This document shows positions 18,991-36,885 of a stretch of 64,000 nt of DNA, piece by piece. Numbering within the stretch: the stretch's first letter is position 1; each line of letters begins with the position of its first letter. The notes under the pieces were generated by a model. It had not been told where the DNA came from. It saw only the letters and a program-made list of their open reading frames with translations, and searched no databases. The translations under genes and the position numbers were made by a program. Source of the stretch: Rhodopseudomonas pseudopalustris (lineage in GTDB: Bacteria > Pseudomonadota > Alphaproteobacteria > Rhizobiales > Xanthobacteraceae); the NCBI RefSeq assembly GCF_900110435.1, contig NZ_FODT01000004.1, positions 248,001-312,000 on the forward strand, given 5' to 3'.

Positions 18991-19866
18991 ATGACGACGC
19001 AGCGATCCGCCCGGCCGGGAGCAAAACCGGCGCGGGCTGGACGTGTGAGTCTCGCCGCGAAACCGGCCAAGGCCGCCGGATCGACGGCCGGGAAGGCTAA
19101 ACCGACCGCCAAGGCGGTCACGACCGAGACGACGAAGAAAACGATCTCAGCAAAGACGTCGGTCAAGGCTGCGAAGGCGACGAAGCCTGCGAAGTCGGTC
19201 AAAGCTCCGAAGGCGACCAAACCTGCGACGGCGATCAAGTCGGCAAAGTCGACCAAATCTGCCGGGACGTCGGCGCGTAAGAAGTCGGCGATCAAGCCGA
19301 CGCCGGCCGAACTCAGCGACCCGAAAGCGAACGGCGACGCAAACGTCGCCAAGCGCAATGCGACGCTGCAGCGCGTGACGTTTCGCGGCGATCTGCGCAG
19401 CGTGCCGACCGACCCCGGCGACGCGCAGGCGATCGATGGTCTCGCGCAGCAGATTGCGCGGCAGGACGCTGCGCACGCGGCCGCCGACAGCCCGGCGCGG
19501 CCTTCGGCGCGCAAGAAACGCAGCGCCGTGGAGCGCCTCGACGATCCCGAGCCCGCCGCCGGGCTGGTGCTGATCGATCGGGTCTCGCAATCGATCGAGC
19601 GCGAACTCTGCGCGATCGAGAAAATCATCGGCGTTCGCCCCAAGAAAGGCGAGCGCACCGAAACCGAACGGCGCGCGCGCACGCTGGCGTCGCTCGCCCG
19701 TACACTCGCCGAAGTGCGCAGATTGCGCAGCGACGAGGAGCGCAAGAGGCCGCTCGATGACGACGCCATCCCCCGAGACCTCGACGAGTTACGGCGCGCG
19801 CTTTCGCGACGACTGGAACAGATGGTCGCCAGCGCAACGCAACTACTTGCTGCAGGGGATGAGTGA
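18991..19866 (+). CDS. GTA small terminase (g1-like) with histone-H1-like N-terminal tail
   Basis: 291 residues. The C-terminal portion, about residues 175-290 (LIDRVSQSIERELCAIEKIIG ... RRARTLASLARTLAEVRRL), has the helical pattern of GTA TerS proteins. The first roughly 100 residues are Lys/Ala/Thr/Pro-rich repeats (KAAKATKPAKSVKAPKATKP), like the tail of histone H1. No internal Met occurs before the last 20 residues, so the tail cannot be skipped by a downstream ATG. It overlaps the TerL gene by 110 bp. TerS selects or engages DNA for packaging; GTA TerS binds DNA with little sequence preference, which a basic tail would suit. Confidence 0.7.
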   Translation: MTTQRSARPGAKPARAGRVSLAAKPAKAAGSTAGKAKPTAKAVTTETTKKTISAKTSVKAAKATKPAKSVKAPKATKPATAIKSAKSTKSAGTSARKKSAIKPTPAELSDPKANGDANVAKRNATLQRVTFRGDLRSVPTDPGDAQAIDGLAQQIARQDAAHAAADSPARPSARKKRSAVERLDDPEPAAGLVLIDRVSQSIERELCAIEKIIGVRPKKGERTETERRARTLASLARTLAEVRRLRSDEERKRPLDDDAIPRDLDELRRALSRRLEQMVASATQLLAAGDE

Positions 19867-21130
19867 GGCCGAGCTGGCGTTTCTCGACGCGCAATGGGAC
19901 GTGTTCGCCCATGATCATCAGCGCCCGCCGGAGCTTGCGCCGAACGGCCGGCCCTGGCTGACCTGGCTGATGATCGGCGGCCGCGGCGCCGGCAAGACCC
20001 GCGGCGGCGCCGAATGGGTCCGCTGCCAGGCGCTCGGGCTTCCGCCGTTTGCGAGCGTCCCGGCGGCGCGGATCGCGCTGGTCGGCGAGACCGAGCACGA
20101 CGTCCGCGAGGTGATGATCGAAGGCGTGTCCGGGCTGCTCGCGGTGCATCCGCCGGATCAGCGGCCGAACTGGCTGCCCTCGCGCAAGCGACTGGAATGG
20201 AGCAACGGCGCAGTGGCGCAGGCGTTCTCCGCCGACGATCCGGAGAGTCTGCGCGGGCCGCAATTTTCCTGCGCGTGGTCCGACGAGATGGCGAAGTGGC
20301 GCTATGCGGAGGCGGCGTTCGACATGCTGCAATTCGGACTGCGGCTCGGCGCGCAGCCGCGGCAATTGATCACCACGACGCCGCGGCCGAGCACGCTGCT
20401 GAAGCGATTGCTCGGCGATGCGTCGGCGGTGACGACGCGGGCGCCGACCCGCGCCAACGCGCTGAACCTTGCGCCGACATTCCTGCAAGCCGTGATGGCG
20501 CGCTACGCCGGCACCCGGCTCGGGCGTCAGGAACTCGACGGCGAACTGATCGAGGAGCGGCCGGACGCGCTGTGGTCGCGCGCGCTGATCGAAGCCTGCC
20601 GCGTCGCCGACGCGCCGCCGCTGCAGCGCCTCGTCGTCGCCGTCGACCCGCCGGTGTCGTCGGGCAAGCGCGCAGATTGCTGCGGCATCGTCGCCGCCGG
20701 CATTGCGGAGAGCGGCGTCGTCTATGTGCTGGCCGACGACAGCGTGGCGGCGGCGACGCCGTCGCTGTGGGCCAACAAGGCGATCGCGCTGTGGCGCAGG
20801 CTCTGCGCCGACGCGCTGGTGGTGGAGATCAACCAGGGCGGCGAGATGGTGAAGACGGTGATCGGCGAAGTCGACGGCAGCGTGCCGGTGACGCCGGTGC
20901 GCGCGTTCCGCGGCAAGTGGCTGCGCGCCGAGCCGGTCGCGACGCTGTACGAGCAGGGCCGCGTCAAACACGCCGGCTGCTTCGCCGCGCTCGAGGACGA
21001 AATGTGCGATTTCGGCGCTTCGGGATTGTCGAACGGCCGCTCGCCCGACCGCCTCGACGCGATGGTCTGGGCCGTCACGACGCTGGCCTTCACGCCGCGC
21101 GCGGCCGAGCCGCGGATCAGGATGTTTTGA
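19757..21130 (+). CDS. GTA large terminase (g2)
   Basis: 457 residues. The packaging motor that pumps DNA into the head and cuts it. The ATPase domain has the Walker A motif GGRGAGKTRGGAEW near residues 75-88 and the Walker B region FSCAWSDEMAKW. The C-terminal nuclease domain begins around VVAVDPPVSSGKRADCCGIV, with metal-binding Asp residues, and ends SPDRLDAMVWAVTTL. The ATG at 19757 has AAGAGG upstream. It lies inside the TerS gene, giving a 110-bp overlap; the first 35 residues also look protein-like, so I keep this start. Confidence 0.92.
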   Translation: MTTPSPETSTSYGARFRDDWNRWSPAQRNYLLQGMSEAELAFLDAQWDVFAHDHQRPPELAPNGRPWLTWLMIGGRGAGKTRGGAEWVRCQALGLPPFASVPAARIALVGETEHDVREVMIEGVSGLLAVHPPDQRPNWLPSRKRLEWSNGAVAQAFSADDPESLRGPQFSCAWSDEMAKWRYAEAAFDMLQFGLRLGAQPRQLITTTPRPSTLLKRLLGDASAVTTRAPTRANALNLAPTFLQAVMARYAGTRLGRQELDGELIEERPDALWSRALIEACRVADAPPLQRLVVAVDPPVSSGKRADCCGIVAAGIAESGVVYVLADDSVAAATPSLWANKAIALWRRLCADALVVEINQGGEMVKTVIGEVDGSVPVTPVRAFRGKWLRAEPVATLYEQGRVKHAGCFAALEDEMCDFGASGLSNGRSPDRLDAMVWAVTTLAFTPRAAEPRIRMF

Positions 21131-24133: not shown

Positions 24134-24221
24134 GGGGATTTCCAGCGTCTCCTCGCAAAGGTCGCGAGGGACGGGCGCCGCTCGCACAGACCATCATTTG
24201 CCAATCATCGAGGCACAACCG

Positions 24222-24962
24222 ATGCAGGGCTCTGCCGGGACCTATGCCGCGCATCAGCGCGCGCGCTTCATGCAATCCGATGCGGCGCGCTGGATGCGCC
24301 CGGACGCAGAACGTTGGATCAGGTCGGACATCGCGCGTTTTCTCGCGCCGGGGACAGATCCGGCATCCATCTTCCCCGCGCTCGACTGCAAATACAGTCC
24401 GAGCCAGCCGCGGGTGCCGGCGGGAAACTCGGATGGCGGGCAGTGGACGAATGGCGGCCCAAGCGCCCGGTGGGCCGTCAATCCGACGGATGTCGACGAT
24501 CGACAGGATGTGCAACGGGCCGCTGACGTTCAACTGGCTCAGGTCGGGAGTTCCGTCACTGACGCAGATGGGCTTCCCTACTACGCAACCGGCGGCCATC
24601 ACGAAATGCCGAGAGGAGTCTACACGAAGTGGGAGTTGCGACCCGAGACTGAACGGGTATTCAATCGATCAACAACTGGATCGCTTGCTACGGGGACCCG
24701 TATCGAGACGGACCAAGGCCTGCTACGGGGCCATTACTGGGACGGACCGAATGGAGCCCATGCCAGGTACAACAACGCCGTTCAGGAGCTGAGTGAGCGC
24801 TTCATGTCGGAGAATCGACTAACATCAGAGATGATGACGCCTGATCATGCCCGGCAGCTCCTGACACGCATCCGAGACTCCGATATTCCGGAGATCAGAG
24901 ATTACAACCGTGCGATCCGGATGCTGCGGCGCATATTCCGATTGGGCAGGGGACGCGAGTAG
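24222..24962 (+). CDS. Predicted polymorphic toxin with PAG-GGQW linker, between protease and capsid
   Basis: 246 residues. Residues 13-44 are four imperfect 8-residue repeats (RARFMQSD, AARWMRPD, AERWIRSD, IARFLAPG). Then comes the linker SQPRVPAGNSDGGQWT (61-76), a pattern I know in front of variable C-terminal domains in Rhizobiales proteins. The C-terminal domain has GGHHEMP (124-130), His171, His180 and RYNNAV (182-187), suggesting an HNH-like nuclease fold, but the family is not certain. A small gene with immunity-like features follows, then a terminator. The ATG at 24222 has GAGG 8 bp upstream. Codon use is less GC-biased than in the structural genes, suggesting transfer. Confidence 0.6.
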   Translation: MQGSAGTYAAHQRARFMQSDAARWMRPDAERWIRSDIARFLAPGTDPASIFPALDCKYSPSQPRVPAGNSDGGQWTNGGPSARWAVNPTDVDDRQDVQRAADVQLAQVGSSVTDADGLPYYATGGHHEMPRGVYTKWELRPETERVFNRSTTGSLATGTRIETDQGLLRGHYWDGPNGAHARYNNAVQELSERFMSENRLTSEMMTPDHARQLLTRIRDSDIPEIRDYNRAIRMLRRIFRLGRGRE

Positions 24963-24990
24963 CCGAGCAGGCAGTAAGGGATGGGCGTCG

Positions 24991-25371
24991 ATGACGGACG
25001 AGGAATTTCTGAGGGTTTGGAATGAGCTGCGTGATCGCGTCATTGCCTATCTCGAGAGCCTCGGGAAGACCATTGATGCGTTCGGCGACAAGGATTTCTG
25101 GGTGGTTGACGACGATTTCGGCCTGTTTCTTGTCCAGGTCGAGATCATGGACCTCGATCTGTTGCAGCCGCAAGTCATCTACGGACTTCGTGACCTGCTC
25201 AACGGATATCCGGAATTCGCAATCACCGTTGCGGTCGTCGCGCCACGCGGGATCGATTGGCCGCGCATGGGCATTTCGCTTGTCAAAGGCCAGATCGTCG
25301 ACGGCTTGAAGCGCTGGGCGCTGCCGCCCGCTTATCAGCACCTGCACTACGAGGGATCGCGGCCGGACTAG
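24991..25371 (+). CDS. Predicted immunity protein partner of the upstream toxin
   Basis: 126 residues starting MTDEEFLRVWNELRDRVIAYL: small, acidic and cytosolic with no signal peptide. The body alternates strands and helices (FGLFLVQVEIMDLDLLQPQVIYGLRDLL; YPEFAITVAVVAPRGIDWP). It starts 28 bp after the toxin gene with AAGGG upstream and is followed by an intrinsic terminator, so the two make a self-contained cassette. Assignment as immunity rests on position, size and charge; I do not recognise the family. Confidence 0.5.
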   Translation: MTDEEFLRVWNELRDRVIAYLESLGKTIDAFGDKDFWVVDDDFGLFLVQVEIMDLDLLQPQVIYGLRDLLNGYPEFAITVAVVAPRGIDWPRMGISLVKGQIVDGLKRWALPPAYQHLHYEGSRPD

Positions 25372-25486: not shown

Positions 25487-26743
25487 ATGGACTACGAGAT
25501 CGCCACCACTGCGCCGGAAACCAAGGCCGGCTTCGCCCCCGCCGATCGCGACGCGCATGACGAGCTGCTGCGCGCTCATGAGGAGTTCAAATCGGCCAAT
25601 GATGAGCGGCTCGCCGCACTCGAGCGTCGCCGCGGCGACGTGTTGCTGGAGGAGAAGGTCGATCGCATTTCGGACGCGATCGACGCGCGGCTGAAGCGGA
25701 TCGAGGACTTTGCGCTGAAGCAGGCGCGGCCGCAGCTCGATGGTCGCCGCGTCGAGACGATCGGCGCCAGCCGCGAGCACAAGAGCGCGTTCGAGGCGTA
25801 CATCCGTTCTGGCGATGCGTCGCCGCTGCGGCAGATCGAGACCAAGGCGCTGTCGGTCGGCTCCAATCCGGACGGCGGATATCTGGTGCCGGAGGAGCTG
25901 GAGCGCAGCATCGCGGCGCGGCTCGGTGCGATCTCACCGATCCGCAGCCTGGCCTCGGTGCGGCAGATCTCCGGCAGCGTCTACAAGAAGCCGTTCATGA
26001 CCGCGGGTCCTGCGACCGGCTGGGTCGGCGAGACCGCGGCGCGGCCGCAGACCAGTTCGCCGACGCTCGATGCGCTGTCGTTCCCGGCGATGGAGCTGTA
26101 TGCGATGCCGGCCGCGACCGCGACGCTGCTCGACGATGCCGCGGTCAATCTCGACGACTGGCTCACCGGCGAGATCGACACCGTGTTCGCCGAGCAGGAG
26201 GGCGCCGCCTTCGTCTCCGGCGACGGGATCAACAAACCGAAAGGCTTTCTCGCCGCGCCGACGGTGGCGAACGCCGCCTGGAGCTGGGGCAATCTCGGCT
26301 TCGTCGCCACCGGCGCCGCCGGCGCATTCCCCGCCAGCAATCCGTCCGACGTGCTGATCGACCTGATGTTCGCGCTGAAGCCGGGCTACCGGCAGAACGC
26401 CAGCTTCGTGATGAACCGGCGGACGCAAGCCGCGATCCGCAAGTTCAAGGACAATAACGGCGTCTATCTATGGCAGCCGCCGGCCACCGCCTCGGGCCGC
26501 GCCAGCCTGATCGGCTTCCCGCTGGCCGACGCCGAGGACATGCCGGACATCGCCGCCAATTCGCTCGCCATCGCCTTCGGCGATTTCCGCCGCGGCTATT
26601 TGATCGTCGACCGCCAGGGCGTCCGCGTCCTGCGCGACCCGTATTCCGCCAAGCCCTACGTGCTGTTCTACACGACGAAGCGCGTCGGCGGCGGCGTGCA
26701 GGATTTCGACGCGATCAAGGTGTTGAAGTTCGGGGGGAGTTGA
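25487..26743 (+). CDS. GTA major capsid protein (g5, HK97 fold)
   Basis: 418 residues. It forms the icosahedral head. The N-terminal region, about residues 1-110, is a charged coiled-coil delta domain that the prohead protease should remove. The HK97 core begins near KALSVGSNPDGGYLVPEEL. Hallmarks include GWVGETAARPQTSSP, ELYAMPAATATLLDDAAVN, SGDGINKPKGFL and GFPLADAEDMPDIAANSLAIAFGDF. CCAGGAGAACCAG upstream supplies the ribosome site. Residues 349-400 are duplicated, with mutations, at 28236-28391. Confidence 0.93.
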   Translation: MDYEIATTAPETKAGFAPADRDAHDELLRAHEEFKSANDERLAALERRRGDVLLEEKVDRISDAIDARLKRIEDFALKQARPQLDGRRVETIGASREHKSAFEAYIRSGDASPLRQIETKALSVGSNPDGGYLVPEELERSIAARLGAISPIRSLASVRQISGSVYKKPFMTAGPATGWVGETAARPQTSSPTLDALSFPAMELYAMPAATATLLDDAAVNLDDWLTGEIDTVFAEQEGAAFVSGDGINKPKGFLAAPTVANAAWSWGNLGFVATGAAGAFPASNPSDVLIDLMFALKPGYRQNASFVMNRRTQAAIRKFKDNNGVYLWQPPATASGRASLIGFPLADAEDMPDIAANSLAIAFGDFRRGYLIVDRQGVRVLRDPYSAKPYVLFYTTKRVGGGVQDFDAIKVLKFGGS

Positions 26744-26846
26744 CGCACGGCGTCCGATCTCCCTCTTTCGCTTGCGGGGGAGGGCCGGGGTGGGACCCCC
26801 CGCCCACGGCGCTGCGATCGGACGGTCAGGTTAGGCGCGCAGTCTC

Positions 26847-26916
26847 GTAGCCCGGATAAGCGAAGCGCCATCCGGGACGCAGCCACCAGCAAAATGCTGC
26901 GCTCATGGCGGGCTAC
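26847..26916. repeat. GTAGCCCG...CGGGCTAC palindromic element
   Basis: Outer arms GTAGCCCG (26847-26854) and CGGGCTAC (26909-26916) enclose a ccggataagcgaagcgccat / atccggga core, a common intergenic repeat of this bacterial group. It separates the convergent capsid and SLOG-like genes. Confidence 0.7.
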
Positions 26917-26945
26917 GCTACGGCGGGGCCGCTCGCATGACTTGA

Positions 26946-27503
26946 TCAGATCGCCAACGAAAGCTGCTTCTGCGACAGACCTTGCAGTCGCGCGCCGAGC
27001 CCGATCTTGTCCTCGGCCTTGGCGCGCGCGTGATCCGACATCATCGTCAGTAGATGCTGCAATCCCGCGACATCGCCGACGGTCACGAAATCCTTCATCT
27101 TGTTGACGAACACCACCGACTTCTTGTCGCGATCGAGGAGTTCGACGACGTTGCTCAGCGTGCCGGTGCTCTTGCTGTCCCAGATCATCAGGCCGACGTC
27201 GCTGAAGTGGGCCATTTCCAGATCTTTCGCGGTGAAGTACGCGCGACTGCCGGGCGCCGCCTTTGGATGCACGGATTTCACCGGCCATCCGCCGACATTG
27301 TTGCGCGGTTCGTCTCCGCTGCAATACACCGTCACGCGCAGCGCGTCATTCTCCGCCAGGCAAGCCTGAATCGACGTGTCGGCACCATCCGCATCGCCGA
27401 CGACGACATCGAGGTCGGAAGCCGCGATGGTCGCGATGCGCTGCTTGACCTTGGCGTCGAGGCGGCTGATCGAAATCGAACCTGCGATGAAGACCGTGGT
27501 CAC
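26946..27503 (-). CDS. SLOG-like (DprA/YspA-type Rossmann) nucleotide-binding protein
   Basis: 185 residues. N-terminal TVFIAGSISIS and the loop VVVGDADGADTSIQACLA (GDADGAD at residues 36-42) fit the nucleotide-binding pattern of SLOG/DUF2493 proteins. The later part (DVGLMIWDSKSTGTLSNVVELLDRDKKSVVFVN) completes the Rossmann-like alternation. The start is GTG at 27503, which overlaps the stop of the upstream PRTase gene (GTGA), so the two are coupled. SLOG domains bind or process nucleotide signals and are frequent in phage-defence operons. The precise family is inferred from motif shape only. Confidence 0.6.
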   Translation of the reverse strand: MTTVFIAGSISISRLDAKVKQRIATIAASDLDVVVGDADGADTSIQACLAENDALRVTVYCSGDEPRNNVGGWPVKSVHPKAAPGSRAYFTAKDLEMAHFSDVGLMIWDSKSTGTLSNVVELLDRDKKSVVFVNKMKDFVTVGDVAGLQHLLTMMSDHARAKAEDKIGLGARLQGLSQKQLSLAI

Positions 27504-28099
27504 GAGTTGCGTCCCTGTGTGATTGCGCCGGCGTAGATCTTTCCGATCTTCGGATAGGTGCGTAACGCGGCGCAGACGGCTTCCATCGAAGCGCCAGTAT
27601 TGAACAAATCGTCGAGCAGCAGCACGTTCCATTTGCCCTCGGCGGGGATGACATCATTTACCGTGAAACGGCCGGCGAGGGCAGCCGCTTTCTCGTCTTT
27701 CGTGGTCAAATTCTTGAGCTGCGGCGCACCCGCAGGAGCAGCCGCTTTGGCCACGACCGTCTCGTACATAGGAATATTTGCCAGCCGCCCAAGTTCCCGG
27801 GCGATCTCCGTCACGGGTTGCCGCGCGCGCGCCGCGGAGGCCGGCATCGGAACGATCAGGCCGACATCAGGAAGCAGCGGTAGCAGCGATATGCGCAGCT
27901 GCTCCGCGAGTGGCTGCACTTGCACCCAATCATTTCGGTATTTGAGCTGGAATAGCGCTTCGCCTGGCTCCGATCTCGTGTTGTCGAACCGGTCATGCCC
28001 ATGTTCGTCTTTTCCGAGATGGATGCTTGAAATGATGTGTTTGTGGAGCGCGTAGCCCAAATCCCAGTTGCCCGTTAAAGGGCGAAGCGCGACCCGCAT
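27500..28099 (-). CDS. ComF-like phosphoribosyltransferase
   Basis: 199 residues starting MRVALRPLTGNWDLGYALHKH. The PRPP-binding loop NVLLLDDLFNTGASM (about residues 156-170) is the type I phosphoribosyltransferase signature. VGLIVPMPASAARARQPVTEIARELGRL resembles the ComF family upstream of that loop. The N-terminal 70 residues (KYRNDWVQVQPLAEQL) are ComF-like without a zinc finger. It is the first gene of a two-gene operon with the SLOG-like gene. A PRTase and a nucleotide-sensing partner suggest a nucleotide-based stress or defence pathway; no such function is proven. Confidence 0.7.
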   Translation of the reverse strand: MRVALRPLTGNWDLGYALHKHIISSIHLGKDEHGHDRFDNTRSEPGEALFQLKYRNDWVQVQPLAEQLRISLLPLLPDVGLIVPMPASAARARQPVTEIARELGRLANIPMYETVVAKAAAPAGAPQLKNLTTKDEKAAALAGRFTVNDVIPAEGKWNVLLLDDLFNTGASMEAVCAALRTYPKIGKIYAGAITQGRNS

Positions 28100-28217
28100 T
28101 TCTCTATTTCCTAAGAACAGCCATAAGCGGCGTTGCGCTGCCAATGCGACCCTAGGTAGATAGCGCTGATTGTTGTCGCGATGGCAAGACGGGACCTTGC
28201 CGGACACAGCAGCGAGC

Positions 28218-28392
28218 GGCTTCGCGCCGGTCGAGGCAGAGGATATGCCGTACATCGCCGCCAATTCGCTCGCGATCGCCTTCGGCGATTTCCGCCGCGG
28301 CTATTTGATCGTCGACCGCCGAGGCGTCCGCGTCCTGCGCGTCCCGTATACCGCCAAGTCCACTATGCTGTTCTACTCGACGAAGCGCGTAG
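28218..28392 (+). pseudogene. Duplicated 3' fragment of the GTA capsid gene
   Basis: Positions 28236-28391 align codon for codon with 26531-26686 of the capsid gene (residues 349-400). By eye 141 of 156 bases match, including a perfect run covering FGDFRRGYLIVDR. Most differences change amino acids (for example DMPD to DMPY, RQG to RRG, RDP to RVP), consistent with relaxed selection. The fragment has no capsid N-terminus and its frame runs out shortly after. Confidence 0.85.
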
Positions 28393-28393
28393 T

Positions 28394-28564
28394 CTTGTCA
28401 GTATCCCGAAACTGAAGCACGATCAGATCACGGGATGGTATATGACGCCAAATGTCGACTTTGATGGATTGACTCCGAGGCAGTATCTCAAGGGAAAGAG
28501 TTGGGACGAAAGACGTCGTTTGGGAATGGATGCGTTGATCAAATTCAAGGTGCTGGCGCCATGA
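28394..28564 (+). pseudogene. C-terminal remnant of a toxin-like protein
   Basis: Directly after the capsid fragment an open frame encodes SIPKLKHDQITGWYMTPNV then DFDGLTPRQYLKGKSWDERR and RLGMDALIKFKVLAP. It has no proper start at its N-terminus. The TPN...GLTPRQYL pattern resembles the C-terminal part of MbcA/ParS-type proteins, though I cannot name the family. It overlaps the DUF2019 gene by 4 bp. An ATG at 28442 with GGGA upstream could allow a 40-residue product. Confidence 0.5.
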
Positions 28565-28932
28565 GGGCTTATCAATTGACGAGAGCGAGCACTGATGAGC
28601 TGGTCGCCTATTTCGCCGAGGTCGTGGTTGGCCAAGATGAGGCGCTGCTGGGAGGCCAGCGAGCGCGTTTCAACCGGCTGTTCGCAGAGATGATGGCGAT
28701 CTCCAATGAATTGAAGAGTCGTGACGGCGATCAACGGAGCGCGTTGCTCGCTCTCTTTCAGTATCCCAACATGCAGGTACGCGTGCAGGCCGCAAAGTTG
28801 ACCCTCGCTGTCGCGCCCATCGAGGCTCGCAAGCAGCTCGAAGCGATTGCAGAGACGCAATGGTTTCCACAAGCCGGCGACGCCGGCATGAGCCTGTCCA
28901 ACCTCGATCGGGGCATCTTTCGGGCAGGCTAG
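28561..28932 (+). CDS. DUF2019 protein (probable immunity or antitoxin partner)
   Basis: 123 residues. The sequence ELVAYFAEVVVGQDEALLGG ... FNRLFAEMMAISNELK ... DQRSALLALFQYPNMQVRVQ ... FPQAGDAGMSLSNLDRGIF closely follows the DUF2019 pattern of a small helical, HEAT-like protein. DUF2019 genes commonly sit just after toxin-like genes in polymorphic toxin loci. The ATGA overlap with the truncated upstream frame suggests a once-complete pair whose toxin half was lost. Confidence 0.75.
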   Translation: MRAYQLTRASTDELVAYFAEVVVGQDEALLGGQRARFNRLFAEMMAISNELKSRDGDQRSALLALFQYPNMQVRVQAAKLTLAVAPIEARKQLEAIAETQWFPQAGDAGMSLSNLDRGIFRAG

Positions 28933-29123
28933 ACCGGCTGCTCAGCTGAGCGGCATCGGAAGGGCTCAATGCCCTGGCGTTTCATGGGTGACCGCTTCGT
29001 TGCGGCCGGACCATCTCCCCGTCGTAGCGCAGGTCGGGAACGAATATGCTAGGCAAGATTTTGCACCAGCGGCGTCGCATCGGCGCGATCGGGAGCGAAT
29101 CGACATTGGGGAGACATCGGACC

Positions 29124-29366
29124 ATGACGCATGTGATCCGGCTTTCGGCCGTGCTGCCCGCGGCGCTCGTCGTTCTTGCGGTGTCCGGCGTCGGCGAGGC
29201 GTTCGCGCGCGGCGGGGCGGCGAGCATCATGGACTCGCCGGGCTATCAGCGCCGGCTGAAGGAATCCCGCGAGCAATTGCAGCAGCCTTACACCACCCCG
29301 CCTGCGGTGTATCCGCGCCGCAAGCTCGGGCCGTATCAGCGCACCAGGCCCATCCCCAGGGGGTGA
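29124..29366 (+). CDS. Small secreted hypothetical protein
   Basis: 80 residues. The signal peptide is VIRLSAVLPAALVVLAVSGVGEAFA. The mature part is short and polar with repeated Tyr/Pro/Arg (SPGYQRRLKESREQLQQPY, YPRRKLGPYQRTRPIPRG). No domain is known. A weak GGGGAGA site lies upstream. Its relation to the GTA is unclear; it may be a bystander in the g5-g6 interval. Confidence 0.5.
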   Translation: MTHVIRLSAVLPAALVVLAVSGVGEAFARGGAASIMDSPGYQRRLKESREQLQQPYTTPPAVYPRRKLGPYQRTRPIPRG

Positions 29367-29465
29367 GCGGTCGTGATGCGGTCGACGCGCGCTGCTCGGC
29401 TGTGATCTCGGGTTGCGTCGCGGGTTGCTCGTGCGCGGTCGACGGCGCAGGCGCGCGACAGCGTC

Positions 29466-29783
29466 TCAGCAGTAGCCGTGCCAGCCGCAGGCGTAGGGCA
29501 GGCGGCCGTAGATCGCCAGCGGCGCGGTGCCGTAATAATTGAAGTAGTAATAGGAATTCGGCTTGCCGTAATAGCCGTTGACCAGCGGCGGGATGTCGAC
29601 CTCCGGTGCATAGACCGGCGAGCCGGTGACGATCGCCCGCGGCGGCGGCACCTCGGCGACGATTCGGCCCCGCTGAACGGGCTCCGCGAAGATCTCGCCG
29701 ATCCGGCCGCGCGCGGGCAGATCCGCGGCGCGCGCGGGCGCTGCGGCGGTCAGCGCGAGGAACAGAACGGCAAGGCGCAGCAT
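29466..29783 (-). CDS. Small secreted Tyr-rich hypothetical protein
   Basis: 105 residues: signal peptide MLRLAVLFLALTAAAPARAA, then a segment with VTGSPVYAPEVDIPPLVNGYYGK and a Tyr-rich stretch (NSYYYFNYYGTAPL) ending in YACGWHGYC. It is probably an exported protein with one disulphide. It is oriented opposite to the GTA genes. No family is named with confidence. Confidence 0.55.
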   Translation of the reverse strand: MLRLAVLFLALTAAAPARAADLPARGRIGEIFAEPVQRGRIVAEVPPPRAIVTGSPVYAPEVDIPPLVNGYYGKPNSYYYFNYYGTAPLAIYGRLPYACGWHGYC

Positions 29784-30037
29784 CACAGGACTCCGGTTTC
29801 CGGCCGCATCGTGGCGCAACATGGTTAACAAAGATTAACGATCGGGCGACGCCGCGATGCGCAGCGGGCGGCGCAGGGTGATGCGGCGAGGGGCGGTGCT
29901 TGTCGGCATCCTTCGAGGCGCGCTGCGCTCGCATCTCAGGTGGACGCCTTTGAGGCGCGCAAATGCGTGCAAAAGGTTGACGCTGCGAGGCGCAGCAGTG
30001 TGCGCATCAGGAGCGCCTGTGCGACGGCTGTGCTTGG

Positions 30038-30802
30038 CTATGGCGGCAGCGCGGCGCCCCAGCTGCGGGCGGTCGAGACGATCCAGTCGCGATACAGCGT
30101 CAGCGGCGTGACGCCGGTGAGGCCGCCGCAGCCGCTGGCATTGGCGGCGCCGGTCGACCACGACACTACGCCGATAATGACGGCGCGGCCGTTCTGCTCC
30201 TGCAGCGCGGGTCCGCCGGAATCGCCGGTGCAGGCTCCCAGGCCGTCGCGCGCATTATGGGTGGCCGGATCGACCAGGCGGATCTGCAGCCGGCCCGGAC
30301 GGCCGGTGGCGATCAGTTGCGCGCTCCGCACCACGCCGCCGCTGCGGCCGTCGCCGCGCTGCGCGACGCCGATGCCGGCGATGGTGAAGCTCTGCCCCGC
30401 CGCCAAAGGATCGCCCGGCGCGCCGATCGGCAGCGGCGTCTTGCCGGGCAGCGGAGCCGCGAGCTGCAGCAGCGCGACGTCGGCGCTGGCGCGATTGGCC
30501 TCGATCGCCCGCCGATCGAATTGCGGATGCGCGGCGACGCGGCGGATGTCGCGCAGCTGCGGCCGCCGCTCTGCGTCGAGCTGCACGATCTTGTAGTCCG
30601 CGCCGGGGCCGACGCAATGCGCCGCGCTCAGCACCAGATCGGGCGCGATCAGCGCGCCGGAACAGAAATTGCCGCGCGAGCCGACGATGGTGACGACGGC
30701 GCGGCCGATGCCATCGTCGCTCTCGCGCGCGCCGCCGACCATCGCGGCGGCGGGGGTGGCGAGGGCGGTCAGCAGCAGGATCAGTTTCAAGGTGCGGATC
30801 AT
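30038..30802 (-). CDS. Exported trypsin-like serine protease
   Basis: 254 residues. The signal peptide MIRTLKLILLLTALATPAAA is followed by MVGGARES (trypsin-like mature start IVGG-like). The catalytic triad is visible: His in LSAAHCVG, Asp in ASADVALLQLA and Ser in GDSGGPALQE. Cysteines in NFCSGA...AAHC and GLGACTGDSGG...GCGG give the chymotrypsin-fold disulphides. This S1 protease would act in the periplasm or outside. It sits antisense, 62 bp from g6, in the capsid-connector gap. Confidence 0.88.
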   Translation of the reverse strand: MIRTLKLILLLTALATPAAAMVGGARESDDGIGRAVVTIVGSRGNFCSGALIAPDLVLSAAHCVGPGADYKIVQLDAERRPQLRDIRRVAAHPQFDRRAIEANRASADVALLQLAAPLPGKTPLPIGAPGDPLAAGQSFTIAGIGVAQRGDGRSGGVVRSAQLIATGRPGRLQIRLVDPATHNARDGLGACTGDSGGPALQEQNGRAVIIGVVSWSTGAANASGCGGLTGVTPLTLYRDWIVSTARSWGAALPP

Positions 30803-30864
30803 GGCGGGCTTCAAGAGCCTCGCCGCCGCGGCGCTGTCAACCGGACGATATCGGAGGGATGAGC

Positions 30865-34787: not shown

Positions 34788-36149
34788 ATGAAACGACGAG
34801 AATTTTTGGGACTGTCCGCGGCAGCCATGCTGAGCAATCTGCCCGTGGCCGATGCCAACAACACAACTCCAGCTATGGATGCTACTTCATCGAACCTGCA
34901 CCTAGACAAGGCGCCACGTCTTTCGATGACCGAACGCGACCGGCGCTGGAAGATGGCGCGCGACATTATGAAGGCGGCAGGTGTCGAGGGGCTCATTGTC
35001 TATGGAGACAGGGAATCCTCCGCTCCGGCCCCCTTCTCTCCCGACAGCTATTTTACCAATGATCGGTTGGGGTCCATCGTCGTGTTTAAAGGAGACGAAC
35101 CACCGGTGGTGCTTGCGTTTGCCCCGATGGCTGTCTCCGATCACATGCAGGCCCGTCTGCGAGGCGACCAACAGTGGCTCGAGCCAAAGCAGATCTTTGT
35201 CGGCAAAAGCGGCGCTCACCTAGTTTCCCTCCTCGATCGCATTGGCCTGACAGGAAAGATCGGCGTGATCGGCCTGGAACCCTATCCACCCTTCTATTTC
35301 GACGGGGCCATTCCCTTCGGTATATGGAATGCCGTCCGGGAAGCCTTTCCAAAGGCCGAGTTCAAGCCGGTATATCGCGAATACTTTATGTTGACCGCCG
35401 CGCACAGTGCGGAGGAACTGGCTCTCATCCGGCATGCCGCTGGCATCGGCGAAAAGATGTGCGAAGCGATGAGGGTAGCGACGAAGCCTGGCGCGTCCGA
35501 AGCCGATATCGTGGCCGCGACTACAGCGGAATGCCTGCGCAATGCCGGCTTTACCGCGGAGGTGCTTTTCGGATCCGGAAGGGAATTCATCGGCTGGGGT
35601 CCCGCCCCCTGGACCTATCGCGCCCAACCGCCCAGAATCATCGAAGAGGGAGACGTGGTGCTTGCAGAGGTTTTCGCCTTCTACGGCATGTACGAAACCC
35701 AGCATCAACCCGCCATAACCGTGGGAAAGGCGCATCCGGAGTTTGAACGGGCTGCAGCCGTTGCGAGAGCCTGTTACGAAGAGGGGCTGCAGGCTCTGCG
35801 TCCCGGACGCACGTTCGGCGAAGTGGTGGAGATCATGGAAGCCCCCCTGATCGCCTCTGGCGGTTGGCATGTCCATCCCCTGATCCACAGCATCAATCCT
35901 TACGGTCCGATCGGCTTTGGTTCGGCTCCCGGGCCGGAATCCCTGCCCGAAGCATCGGCATACGGCTCGATCGGACGCCTTCCCACGACCTGGCGCGATC
36001 TGCCGCTGCAGGAAGGCATGTCTTTCGCCTTCGAAACGAATTGTGCGTTTGGCAGGCATCTGGCAAATCTGGGTGGTACTGTTCTTGTCGGCTCGGACGG
36101 GGGCATTGAGCTCAACAGCAACTCGACCAACGTGATGAGAGCAGGTTGA
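34788..36149 (+). CDS. Exported M24-family (creatinase / Xaa-Pro aminopeptidase-like) protein
   Basis: 453 residues. The N-terminus MKRREFLGLSAAAML is a twin-arginine-type signal. A creatinase N-terminal domain (about residues 45-190) is followed by the pita-bread fold: AHSAEELALIRHAAGIGEKM, GASEADIVAATTAECL, EEGDVVLAEVFAFYG, GMSFAFETNCAFG. In the positions of the two metal-binding Asp residues of aminopeptidases the sequence reads LAEVFA and ETQHQPAI, so the dinuclear metal site seems lost, as in creatinase. The substrate is unknown. It is followed 55 bp later by a TetR regulator on the same strand. Confidence 0.8.
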   Translation: MKRREFLGLSAAAMLSNLPVADANNTTPAMDATSSNLHLDKAPRLSMTERDRRWKMARDIMKAAGVEGLIVYGDRESSAPAPFSPDSYFTNDRLGSIVVFKGDEPPVVLAFAPMAVSDHMQARLRGDQQWLEPKQIFVGKSGAHLVSLLDRIGLTGKIGVIGLEPYPPFYFDGAIPFGIWNAVREAFPKAEFKPVYREYFMLTAAHSAEELALIRHAAGIGEKMCEAMRVATKPGASEADIVAATTAECLRNAGFTAEVLFGSGREFIGWGPAPWTYRAQPPRIIEEGDVVLAEVFAFYGMYETQHQPAITVGKAHPEFERAAAVARACYEEGLQALRPGRTFGEVVEIMEAPLIASGGWHVHPLIHSINPYGPIGFGSAPGPESLPEASAYGSIGRLPTTWRDLPLQEGMSFAFETNCAFGRHLANLGGTVLVGSDGGIELNSNSTNVMRAG

Positions 36150-36204
36150 CACGAGTCTGACGCCTGGTCGAACCCACGGCCAGGCTTCAGGCGAGACACC
36201 AGAC

Positions 36205-36885
36205 ATGAAGATAAGCAGCGGCATCGAGATACAGAACAAATCTTCGGAAGCGACGCGCGAGAGACTGATTGAGGCAGGCCTAAAGCTCTTTGCCGAGCTC
36301 GGTATGGACGGCGTGCGAACACGCGCGCTGGCCGAGGTTGCAGGGGTCAATCAGTCGGCAATACCCTATCATTTCGGCAGCAAGGACGGCGTCTACAGAG
36401 CGGTGATTGAAGAAATCGCCAGGGAAATCGCAGATGGGTTGGCCGCTACTGGCCTGCTGCAGATGTCCGCCGCGGAGGGCAAAACAATGTCGCGAGATCG
36501 ATGCCTGAAAAACCTCCGCGCCTTGATCCGAGCCTTCACTATTCTGATTCTATCGCCAGGCCGATCTACGGACCGCACCCTTCTGATCGTCAGGGAGCAG
36601 CTTCGACCGACAGAAAACTTCAATCACCTTTTCAAAAGCTTCATTGAGCCGATACACAAGACCGTGGGCAGCATAGTTGCCCGACTGAACGATGATCGTG
36701 CCGACAGTGAGGTCACGATAATACGGGCACATGCGATCATCGGCCAAGTTCTATCGTTTGCTGTAGCTCAACACTCCTATCTGATGCGATCGAAGAATTC
36801 CAAACTGTCGCTCGACAAGGTGGAAGAAATTGCCGATGTCATATCTGAAATGGCAGTAGTATCTGCGGACTTCAGCGGGCGCTAA
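36205..36885 (+). CDS. TetR/AcrR family transcriptional regulator
   Basis: 226 residues. The helix-turn-helix domain spans about residues 14-60: SEATRERLIEAGLKLFAELG, TRALAEVAGVNQSAIPYHFGSKDGVYRAVI. The ligand-binding C-terminal domain includes LIVREQLRPTENFNHLF, like CerR/YbiH-type TetR proteins (MIREQ...). It probably represses its own operon with the M24 gene through the palindrome at 34735. Its codon use is lower in GC than in flanking GTA genes. Confidence 0.85.
   Translation: MKISSGIEIQNKSSEATRERLIEAGLKLFAELGMDGVRTRALAEVAGVNQSAIPYHFGSKDGVYRAVIEEIAREIADGLAATGLLQMSAAEGKTMSRDRCLKNLRALIRAFTILILSPGRSTDRTLLIVREQLRPTENFNHLFKSFIEPIHKTVGSIVARLNDDRADSEVTIIRAHAIIGQVLSFAVAQHSYLMRSKNSKLSLDKVEEIADVISEMAVVSADFSGR

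What the first reader, a model, noticed from the sequence alone, without database searches (positions are those of the whole stretch)
26946..28099. Coupled SLOG-like and ComF-like phosphoribosyltransferase genes: possible undescribed defence pair
The two genes overlap by 4 bp (GTGA), run against the GTA genes and lie in an island. One carries a GDADGAD nucleotide loop typical of SLOG proteins, the other a PRPP loop LLLDDLFNTGAS. A PRTase that makes or alters a nucleotide plus a SLOG sensor is a logical signalling pair, and I know no named system with exactly this layout.
Basis: inference. Interest (0 to 1): 0.75.

Follow-up and report, generated by a model that had tools for sequence, protein, structure and literature searches.

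The report
Compact PRTase–SLOG toxin–antitoxin-like pair
Two tightly coupled small genes, wedged into a bacterium's gene-transfer-agent cluster, look like a stripped-down relative of known toxin–antitoxin anti-phage systems, with relatives on plasmids and prophages.

Summary
In detail: a 199-aa ComF-like phosphoribosyltransferase (PRTase, 28099..27500) and a 185-aa SLOG-like protein (27503..26946) overlap by GTGA on the minus strand, between a GTA capsid gene and an 89%-identical 177-nt copy of its 3' part. The layout is not unnamed: PsyrTA/RqlHI and ShosTA pair a PRTase toxin with a DprA-like (SLOG) antitoxin. The PRTase profile matches PsyrT's PRTase domain (hhalign E 1.7e-10); the SLOG profile matches one ShosA (E 7.4e-6). 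Helicase and ShosA N-terminal part are absent, so it is neither system. A full-length PRTase lies directly upstream of the SLOG in 48 of 55 usable fetched loci. Some SLOG relatives carry a C-terminal HTH, in one group an 'addiction module antidote' domain. Relatives sit beside plasmid partition and TA genes, in P2-like prophages and next to CBASS. Both PRTases found without SLOG are broken (8 of 14 candidates unopened). Best reading: a compact PRTase-toxin/SLOG-antitoxin module, plausibly anti-phage. Toxicity, neutralisation and phage response are untested; structure prediction failed. Bonus: behind the GTA capsid gene of Rhodopseudomonas lies a variable cargo site (DarTG, HicA, methyltransferase, this pair).

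The parts
27500..28099 (-). ComF-like phosphoribosyltransferase, 199 aa; predicted toxin/effector; PRPP-loop acidic pair at residues 163-164 (DDLFNTGAS)
   Evidence: Translation; Pfam PF00156 E 0.0048, below its cut-off; PADLOC PsyrT 6.6e-7, ShosT 6.7e-5; hhalign to PsyrT PRTase domain E 1.7e-10; D163, D164 and G169 invariant in 21 aligned sequences, window included
26946..27503 (-). SLOG/DprA-like Rossmann-type protein, 185 aa, GTG start; predicted antitoxin/sensor
   Evidence: Translation; hhalign to ShosA core E 7.4e-6 over 129 columns, score above all 576 non-member control ORFs; 26 invariant columns in 23 aligned sequences, window included, among them G37 D38 A39 G41 D43, R68 N69 N70, K94 D95, D110, S113, G115 T116, N119
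27500..27503 (-). 4-nt stop/start overlap GTGA (TGA of PRTase, GTG of SLOG): likely translational coupling
   Evidence: Sequence; gap of -4 to +14 nt in 47 of the 48 relatives with a full-length PRTase, -83 in L007
26509..26685 (+). 3' part of the GTA capsid gene, first copy of the direct repeat that flanks the insert
28214..28390 (+). partial second copy (89%) of the capsid gene 3' part: far boundary of the insert
   Evidence: Pfam Phage_capsid 1.7e-10 on window 28170-28412
25505..26743 (+). GTA major capsid gene (context)
   Evidence: TIGR01554 E 5.9e-122
28501..28932 (+). DUF2019 gene, neighbouring cargo (context)
   Evidence: PF09450 E 1.8e-43

Best explanation
The pair is a compact toxin–antitoxin module of the PRTase/DprA-like kind. 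Shown by sequence: a PRTase homologous to the PsyrT toxin domain with a conserved PRPP loop; a SLOG-like protein related to ShosA; tight coupling with the PRTase first; linkage conserved across phyla; mobile and defence contexts; asymmetric loss. [quoted passage not shown] Loss of the carrier, or a phage-made change sensed in the SLOG nucleotide pocket, would free the toxin and stop growth. In this window the pair rides as cargo in a variable site inside a GTA cluster.
For: PRTase to PsyrT: PADLOC 6.6e-7 here, 1.9e-17 and 2.6e-17 for relatives L013 and L008; hhalign 6e-12 and 1.7e-10. SLOG to ShosA 7.4e-6; 0 of 576 non-member control ORFs and 0 of 100 ShosA shuffles score as high, and three of the four best non-members are PsyrA (two) and DprA (one). 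SLOG relatives are fused at the C-terminus to HTH domains of two Pfam families: HTH_37 in L011, L015, L018, and PF21716/TIGR02684 'addiction module antidote' in L012, L013; that HTH_37 is common in HigA-type antitoxins is recalled. Linkage: full-length PRTase directly upstream in 48 of 55 usable loci. Loss asymmetry: SLOG open with no, partial or broken PRTase in L006, L009, L010, L012, L055, L056, L059; both PRTases found without SLOG are broken (L122 by IS1, L124 in two frames). Plasmid neighbours ParA/ParB, ParDE, RepA, recombinase. Literature: RqlI restrains RqlH toxicity, which needs the PRTase domain, and co-precipitates only when that domain is present (PMC4670107); a DprA + PRTase pair in the P2 hotspot protects against T7 and lambda (PMC9122126).
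Against: No toxicity, binding or phage data for this family. [quoted passage not shown] SLOG to PsyrA is marginal (hhalign E 0.024) and to housekeeping DprA weaker (0.12, no better than the control value of 0.1); PRTase to ShosT by hhalign is not significant (0.063). ShosA was a single sequence. HTH_37 relatives hit antitoxin models in NCBIfam only below their cut-offs. The loss pattern rests on few cases: 8 of 14 candidate lone-PRTase plasmid records were not opened, and the broken genes in L009 (a MAG) and L124 could be sequencing errors. No solved structure is found by SLOG sequence. Structure prediction failed. No sigma-70-like promoter was seen, which says little in this genus.
Confidence: 0.73

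Rival explanations
1. Two-gene signalling defence: the PRTase makes or alters a nucleotide and the SLOG protein senses it or is activated by it; no classical toxin–antitoxin relation.
For: Invariant polar residues of the SLOG protein (R68 N69 N70 K94 D95 D110 S113 N119) look like more than a bare scaffold; the PRTase keeps a canonical-looking DDxxxTG loop, whereas the consensus of seven PsyrT proteins reads DDxVDSRWT; relatives lie beside CBASS in L058.
Against: Some SLOG relatives carry HTH domains, one group an addiction-antidote type, and SLOG occurs without PRTase. I saw no third gene recurring beside the pair in the annotated regions read (by eye).
Confidence: 0.15
2. Enzymatic antidote, a sub-form of the TA reading: the PRTase writes a nucleotide adduct and the SLOG protein removes it, as DarG does for DarT (recalled); SLOG includes LOG phosphoribohydrolases (recalled).
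For: Strict conservation of polar residues in SLOG; PMC4670107 offers a similar resolve-the-modification model for RqlHI (Fig 10 legend).
Against: The GTxxE glutamate that I recall for LOG enzymes is GTxxN here (N119 invariant). Direct binding is the mode with experimental support in RqlHI.
Confidence: 0.2
3. Competence or housekeeping ComF-type gene pair.
For: Records name many of these PRTases 'ComF family protein'; the genome's second PRTase hit, ComF-like by my reading, is a distant relative (31%, E 7.2e-6).
Against: The window PRTase scores 14.9 bits against the TIGR00201 cut-off 233.55 and has a single cysteine, whereas the own-genome ComF-like protein has a cysteine-rich N-terminus. The SLOG partner is sporadic: 5 of 198 family genomes, 7 of 385 class genomes, 7 of 398 phylum genomes (own genome in each count, G223 in two; one class match, L024, only 27 residues long).
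Confidence: 0.04
4. Decaying passenger without function in this strain.
For: The same site in G028 has an open SLOG and only a PRTase remnant.
Against: Both window genes are intact with dN/dS 0.14-0.24.
Confidence: 0.05

Closest known systems
PsyrTA / RqlHI (RecQ-helicase–PRTase toxin with DprA-like antitoxin)
   Same: PRTase domain homologous (hhalign E 1.7e-10); toxin gene first, antitoxin second, with 4-nt overlap in L106 and L109
   Different: No helicase; PRTase is a stand-alone 199-aa protein; PRPP loop DDLFNTGAS instead of DDxVDSRWT; antitoxin 185 aa against 333 and 426 aa (L113, L106), profile link marginal (E 0.024)
ShosTA (PRTase toxin, DprA-like antitoxin)
   Same: Stand-alone PRTase plus SLOG/DprA-like partner; SLOG core aligns to ShosA 116-261 (E 7.4e-6); genes overlap by 4 nt in both
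   Different: Gene order reversed in the one ShosTA locus found (L126: ShosA first); the first ~115 residues of ShosA are absent here; PRTase link by hhalign not significant (0.063)
ComF/ComFC competence PRTase
   Same: PRTase superfamily; label used in records
   Different: No cysteine-rich N-terminus, far below the family cut-off, mobile context
DarTG
   Same: Two-gene toxin–antitoxin (recalled); occupies the same GTA site in another Rhodopseudomonas genome (L085)
   Different: DarT ADP-ribosyltransferase and macrodomain protein, unrelated to PRTase and SLOG

Membership tests
PsyrTA / RqlHI | Toxin PRTase domain of the PsyrT family | tested here: met
   PADLOC 6.6e-7 over PsyrT 574-684; hhalign E 1.7e-10 over 140 columns
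PsyrTA / RqlHI | N-terminal RecQ-like helicase in the same protein | tested here: not met
   199 aa, PRTase region only
PsyrTA / RqlHI | DprA-like antitoxin gene directly downstream | tested here: inconclusive
   SLOG-like gene is downstream with 4-nt overlap, but profile match to PsyrA is E 0.024
ShosTA | DprA-like antitoxin of the ShosA family | tested here: inconclusive
   Core matches one ShosA by hhalign E 7.4e-6; PADLOC gives no ShosA hit for the window protein and 0.038 for relative L013; N-terminal part absent
ShosTA | ShosT PRTase | tested here: inconclusive
   PADLOC 6.7e-5 but hhalign 0.063 to one ShosT
ShosTA | Gene order antitoxin then toxin, as in the one ShosTA locus found | tested here: not met
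   L126
Type II-like toxin–antitoxin module (general) | Small coupled co-directional genes, conserved linkage | tested here: met
Type II-like toxin–antitoxin module (general) | Toxicity of one protein, neutralised by the other | not testable with these tools
   needs bench work
SLOG superfamily | Rossmannoid SLOG/DprA core | tested here: inconclusive
   Sequence-profile support and weak DprA/ShosA/ThsA hits in relatives; structure jobs failed
ComF family (TIGR00201) | Curated score cut-off | tested here: not met
   14.9 bits against 233.55

The most novel reading that the evidence does not exclude
A separate, widespread family of minimal PRTase–SLOG toxin–antitoxin modules, whose SLOG antitoxin has acquired DNA-binding domains of two different HTH families, serves as cargo at a site behind the capsid gene of a gene transfer agent. 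There TA and restriction-type cassettes are exchanged through duplicated capsid 3' ends, so that the domesticated GTA cluster doubles as a defence island or is kept from loss by addiction.
Probability: 0.3. Interest if true: 0.75.

Novelty: new variant of a known kind. Interest (0 to 1): 0.55.

Why it matters
The chemistry of PRTase toxins is left open in the passages read here. This family strips the problem to two proteins of about 190 residues each, without helicase, and has E. coli homologues in P2-like prophages and on plasmids. SLOG proteins fused to HTH domains, one of an addiction-antidote type, would tie the SLOG superfamily to direct toxin control. The GTA site gives a tractable place to ask why a domesticated phage remnant collects toxin–antitoxin and restriction-type genes.

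Tried and rejected
Rejected: competence ComF (score far below cut-off, one cysteine only); housekeeping role (sporadic, mobile); the 228- and 254-aa longer ORFs as real starts. Led nowhere: Pfam, NCBIfam and PADLOC on the SLOG protein alone (no hit); PDB by sequence for SLOG (best E 0.3); promoter/terminator scan (0 and 1 found against shuffle means of 0.4 and 1.5); phage-record searches with both window proteins and one SLOG relative (none at E 1e-5). Family searches with the ShosA and PsyrT models rang in 234 of 249 and 249 of 249 genomes, presumably mostly on DprA and RecQ; full-length PsyrT loci were taken from the latter. One PHROG hit of the SLOG protein, phrog_289 'GTP-binding domain' 5.7e-8, was not followed. 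PMC6899734 on Bartonella GTA held nothing on the point (one passage).

Full report
What is there. On the minus strand a 199-aa PRTase (28099..27500) is followed by a 185-aa SLOG-like protein (27503..26946); the stop of the first and the start of the second share GTGA. The surrounding plus-strand genes are a gene transfer agent cluster: megatron NF048004, hub TIGR02218, distal tail TIGR02217, HK97-type capsid and portal, and a terminase-like gene at 19757-21130 (63% identical to a Pfam-supported terminase in L083). The pair lies between the intact capsid gene and a 177-nt, 89%-identical copy of the capsid gene's 3' part, in DNA of lower GC.

Family assignment. Alone, the SLOG protein matches no model in Pfam, NCBIfam or PADLOC at E up to 1. 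The PRTase matches PF00156 below its cut-off, PADLOC PsyrT at 6.6e-7 and ShosT at 6.7e-5; relatives L013 and L008 reach 1.9e-17 and 2.6e-17 to PsyrT. Profile comparisons give PRTase to PsyrT 6e-12 and 1.7e-10, to one ShosT 0.063, to two controls 0.24 and 0.39. SLOG gives 7.4e-6 to one ShosA (L126), 0.024 to PsyrA, 0.12 to twelve DprA proteins, and 0.1 and 0.73 to two controls, so the DprA value by itself is no better than a control. As a null, 600 mechanical ORFs from fetched loci were scored; 24 were members of the family itself, and none of the other 576 reached the ShosA score of 44.5. The best of them were 31.0 (an unrelated ORF), 29.2 (PsyrA, L113), 27.1 (DprA, L104) and 27.0 (PsyrA, L106). 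Of 100 shuffled ShosA sequences the best scored 29.7. Weak hits of relatives also point to SLOG proteins: DNA_processg_A 0.0075-0.0085, dprA 0.015 and 0.064, ShosA 0.038, ThsA 0.019. PMC7824862 (passages) places DprA in the SLOG superfamily. Structure could not be tested.

Conserved linkage. Relatives were fetched from genomes, plasmids and viral contigs. Of 59 loci I set aside the window's own copy (L001), a 27-residue fragment match (L024) and two where the contig ends at the SLOG gene (L031, L054). Of the remaining 55, 48 have a PRTase of at least 180 aa directly upstream, 47 with a gap of -4 to +14 nt and L007 with an overlap of 83 nt. The loci were chosen by their SLOG and some are near-identical, so they are not independent samples. 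The seven others are L006, L012, L055, L056, L059 (no PRTase found by tblastn) and L009, L010 (partial or truncated PRTase; L009 is a MAG, so a sequencing error is possible). In plasmids, 61 records match the PRTase and 92 the SLOG. I listed 60 of 61 and 67 of 92: 46 of the 60 PRTase records also appear in the SLOG lists, all within 1 kb. Of the 14 that do not, I opened 6: four have the SLOG next door and two do not: L122, where an IS1 lies on the end of the PRTase gene (a second place in that record was not read), and L124, where the PRTase match lies in two frames. Eight were not opened. 21 of the 67 listed SLOG records have no listed PRTase; the three I opened are Mesorhizobium, Shinella and Sphingobium plasmids with a solitary SLOG.

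Why antitoxin. In L011, L015 and L018 the SLOG carries a C-terminal HTH_37 domain (4.6e-19 to 6.6e-20); in L012 and L013 it carries PF21716/TIGR02684, 'probable addiction module antidote protein' (down to 3.9e-28). That HTH_37 is common in HigA-type antitoxins is recalled; in NCBIfam L015 and L018 touch the Y4mF antitoxin model only below its cut-off. Records already call several such proteins 'addiction module antidote protein'. Together with the loss pattern (SLOG without a full PRTase in seven loci, while the only two PRTases found without SLOG are broken), this fits toxin = PRTase, antitoxin = SLOG. The loss pattern is a small sample.

Contexts. Plasmids: beside ParA/ParB and RepC, recombinase and ParA/ParB, RepA, ParDE and ParA, a RepA regulator, nucleotidyltransferase, HNH and SIR2 genes, CBASS and VapC, type II restriction–modification. 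Viral contigs: 25 loci. No match in 50,697 phage records. E. coli: one pair type in 8 of 5426 genomes, another query in 33 of 5426 (21 with at least 80% cover). The two chromosomal copies I opened lie in prophages that I read as P2-like: one between portal and replication genes next to an AAA ATPase (L128), one near ogr (L127). Rousset et al. (PMC9122126, passages) describe a DprA + PRTase pair in a P2 hotspot that protects against T7 and lambda and note DprA homologues as antitoxins in shosTA, syrTA and rqlHI; PMC11878078 (passages) describes ShosTA the same way. Russell and Mulvey (PMC4670107, abstract and passages) show that the RqlH PRTase domain is required for toxicity, that RqlI restrains it and that co-precipitation needs that domain; the domain alone was not toxic there, which counts against my reading. 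Iyer et al. (PMC5512222, section 24 read) note solo PRTases in phage and plasmid contexts and leave the function open.

The GTA site. All 16 genomes of the genus searched carry the capsid gene, and 7 of 16 also show partial 3' copies of it. Of the 16, two contigs end at the capsid gene (G934, G170). In 13 of the other 14 the distance from capsid to the next conserved genes, read by me, ranges from under 0.1 kb (G089, G181) to nearly 10 kb (G931); in G028 the far side lies beyond the fetched stretch. Cargo includes DarTG (G931), a HicA toxin and a PDC-S28 helicase (G156), a C5 methyltransferase with a NOV_C protein (G125), QueC with a DUF6884/PDC-M57 protein (G108), HipA_2 with DUF3037 (G190), and this pair in four genomes: the window, G933, G930 and G028, the last with only a PRTase remnant. 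Only selected cargo ORFs were scanned (20 of 47 called by script in six loci, with Pfam; 10 with PADLOC).

Print. I found no paper on such a GTA site and none describing this compact pair as such; the library is open-access only, and most hits were seen as listings. A validated defence system with a PRTase appears in a figure legend of PMC13092281; I did not see what it is, so the pair may already be there.

Selection. Window comparisons give dN/dS 0.14, 0.24 and 0.22 for SLOG (L002, L003, L010) and 0.16 for PRTase (L002, L003).

Verdict. A compact variant of the PRTase/DprA-like toxin–antitoxin kind. It meets the PRTase test for PsyrT but fails the helicase test, and only its SLOG core resembles ShosA, with the gene order reversed, so I do not file it as either. 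Mechanistic steps beyond sequence are inference.

Noticed in passing
window 26743-30859; L079-L091: Interval behind the GTA capsid gene is a variable cargo site in Rhodopseudomonas, with partial capsid 3' ends and TA/restriction-type cargo.
   Followed up: partly
L083, L084, L085, L088, L089, L090, L082: In 7 of 14 readable genomes a terminase large-subunit gene lies after the cargo, downstream of the capsid gene, instead of upstream of portal as in the window (L082 partial; Pfam test on L083 only).
   Followed up: no
window 24198-25371: Two genes of unknown family just upstream of the capsid gene; the first contains a YSPSQPRVPAGNSDGGQWT stretch, and the pair looks to me like toxin plus immunity; relatives sit upstream of capsid in several other genomes.
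   Followed up: partly
window 28181-28932; L079: DUF2019 gene behind a fragment shared with other genomes; three DUF2019 matches in a row in L079.
   Followed up: no
window 34788-36885: A peptidase/hydrolase-like gene and a TetR-type regulator sit between the GTA distal tail gene and the hub gene.
   Followed up: no
L055 5001-5534; L056 5001-5537: Solitary SLOG relatives at a similar spot (DUF2493 ... SLOG ... DUF736) on Mesorhizobium and Shinella plasmids, possibly anti-addiction genes.
   Followed up: no
L085 6462-10823: 1454-aa ORF in the GTA cargo of G931 with no Pfam or PADLOC match at E 0.001.
   Followed up: no
L018 1211-5328: Nucleotidyltransferase, HNH and SIR2 genes directly upstream of the pair on a Sinorhizobium plasmid.
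   Followed up: no
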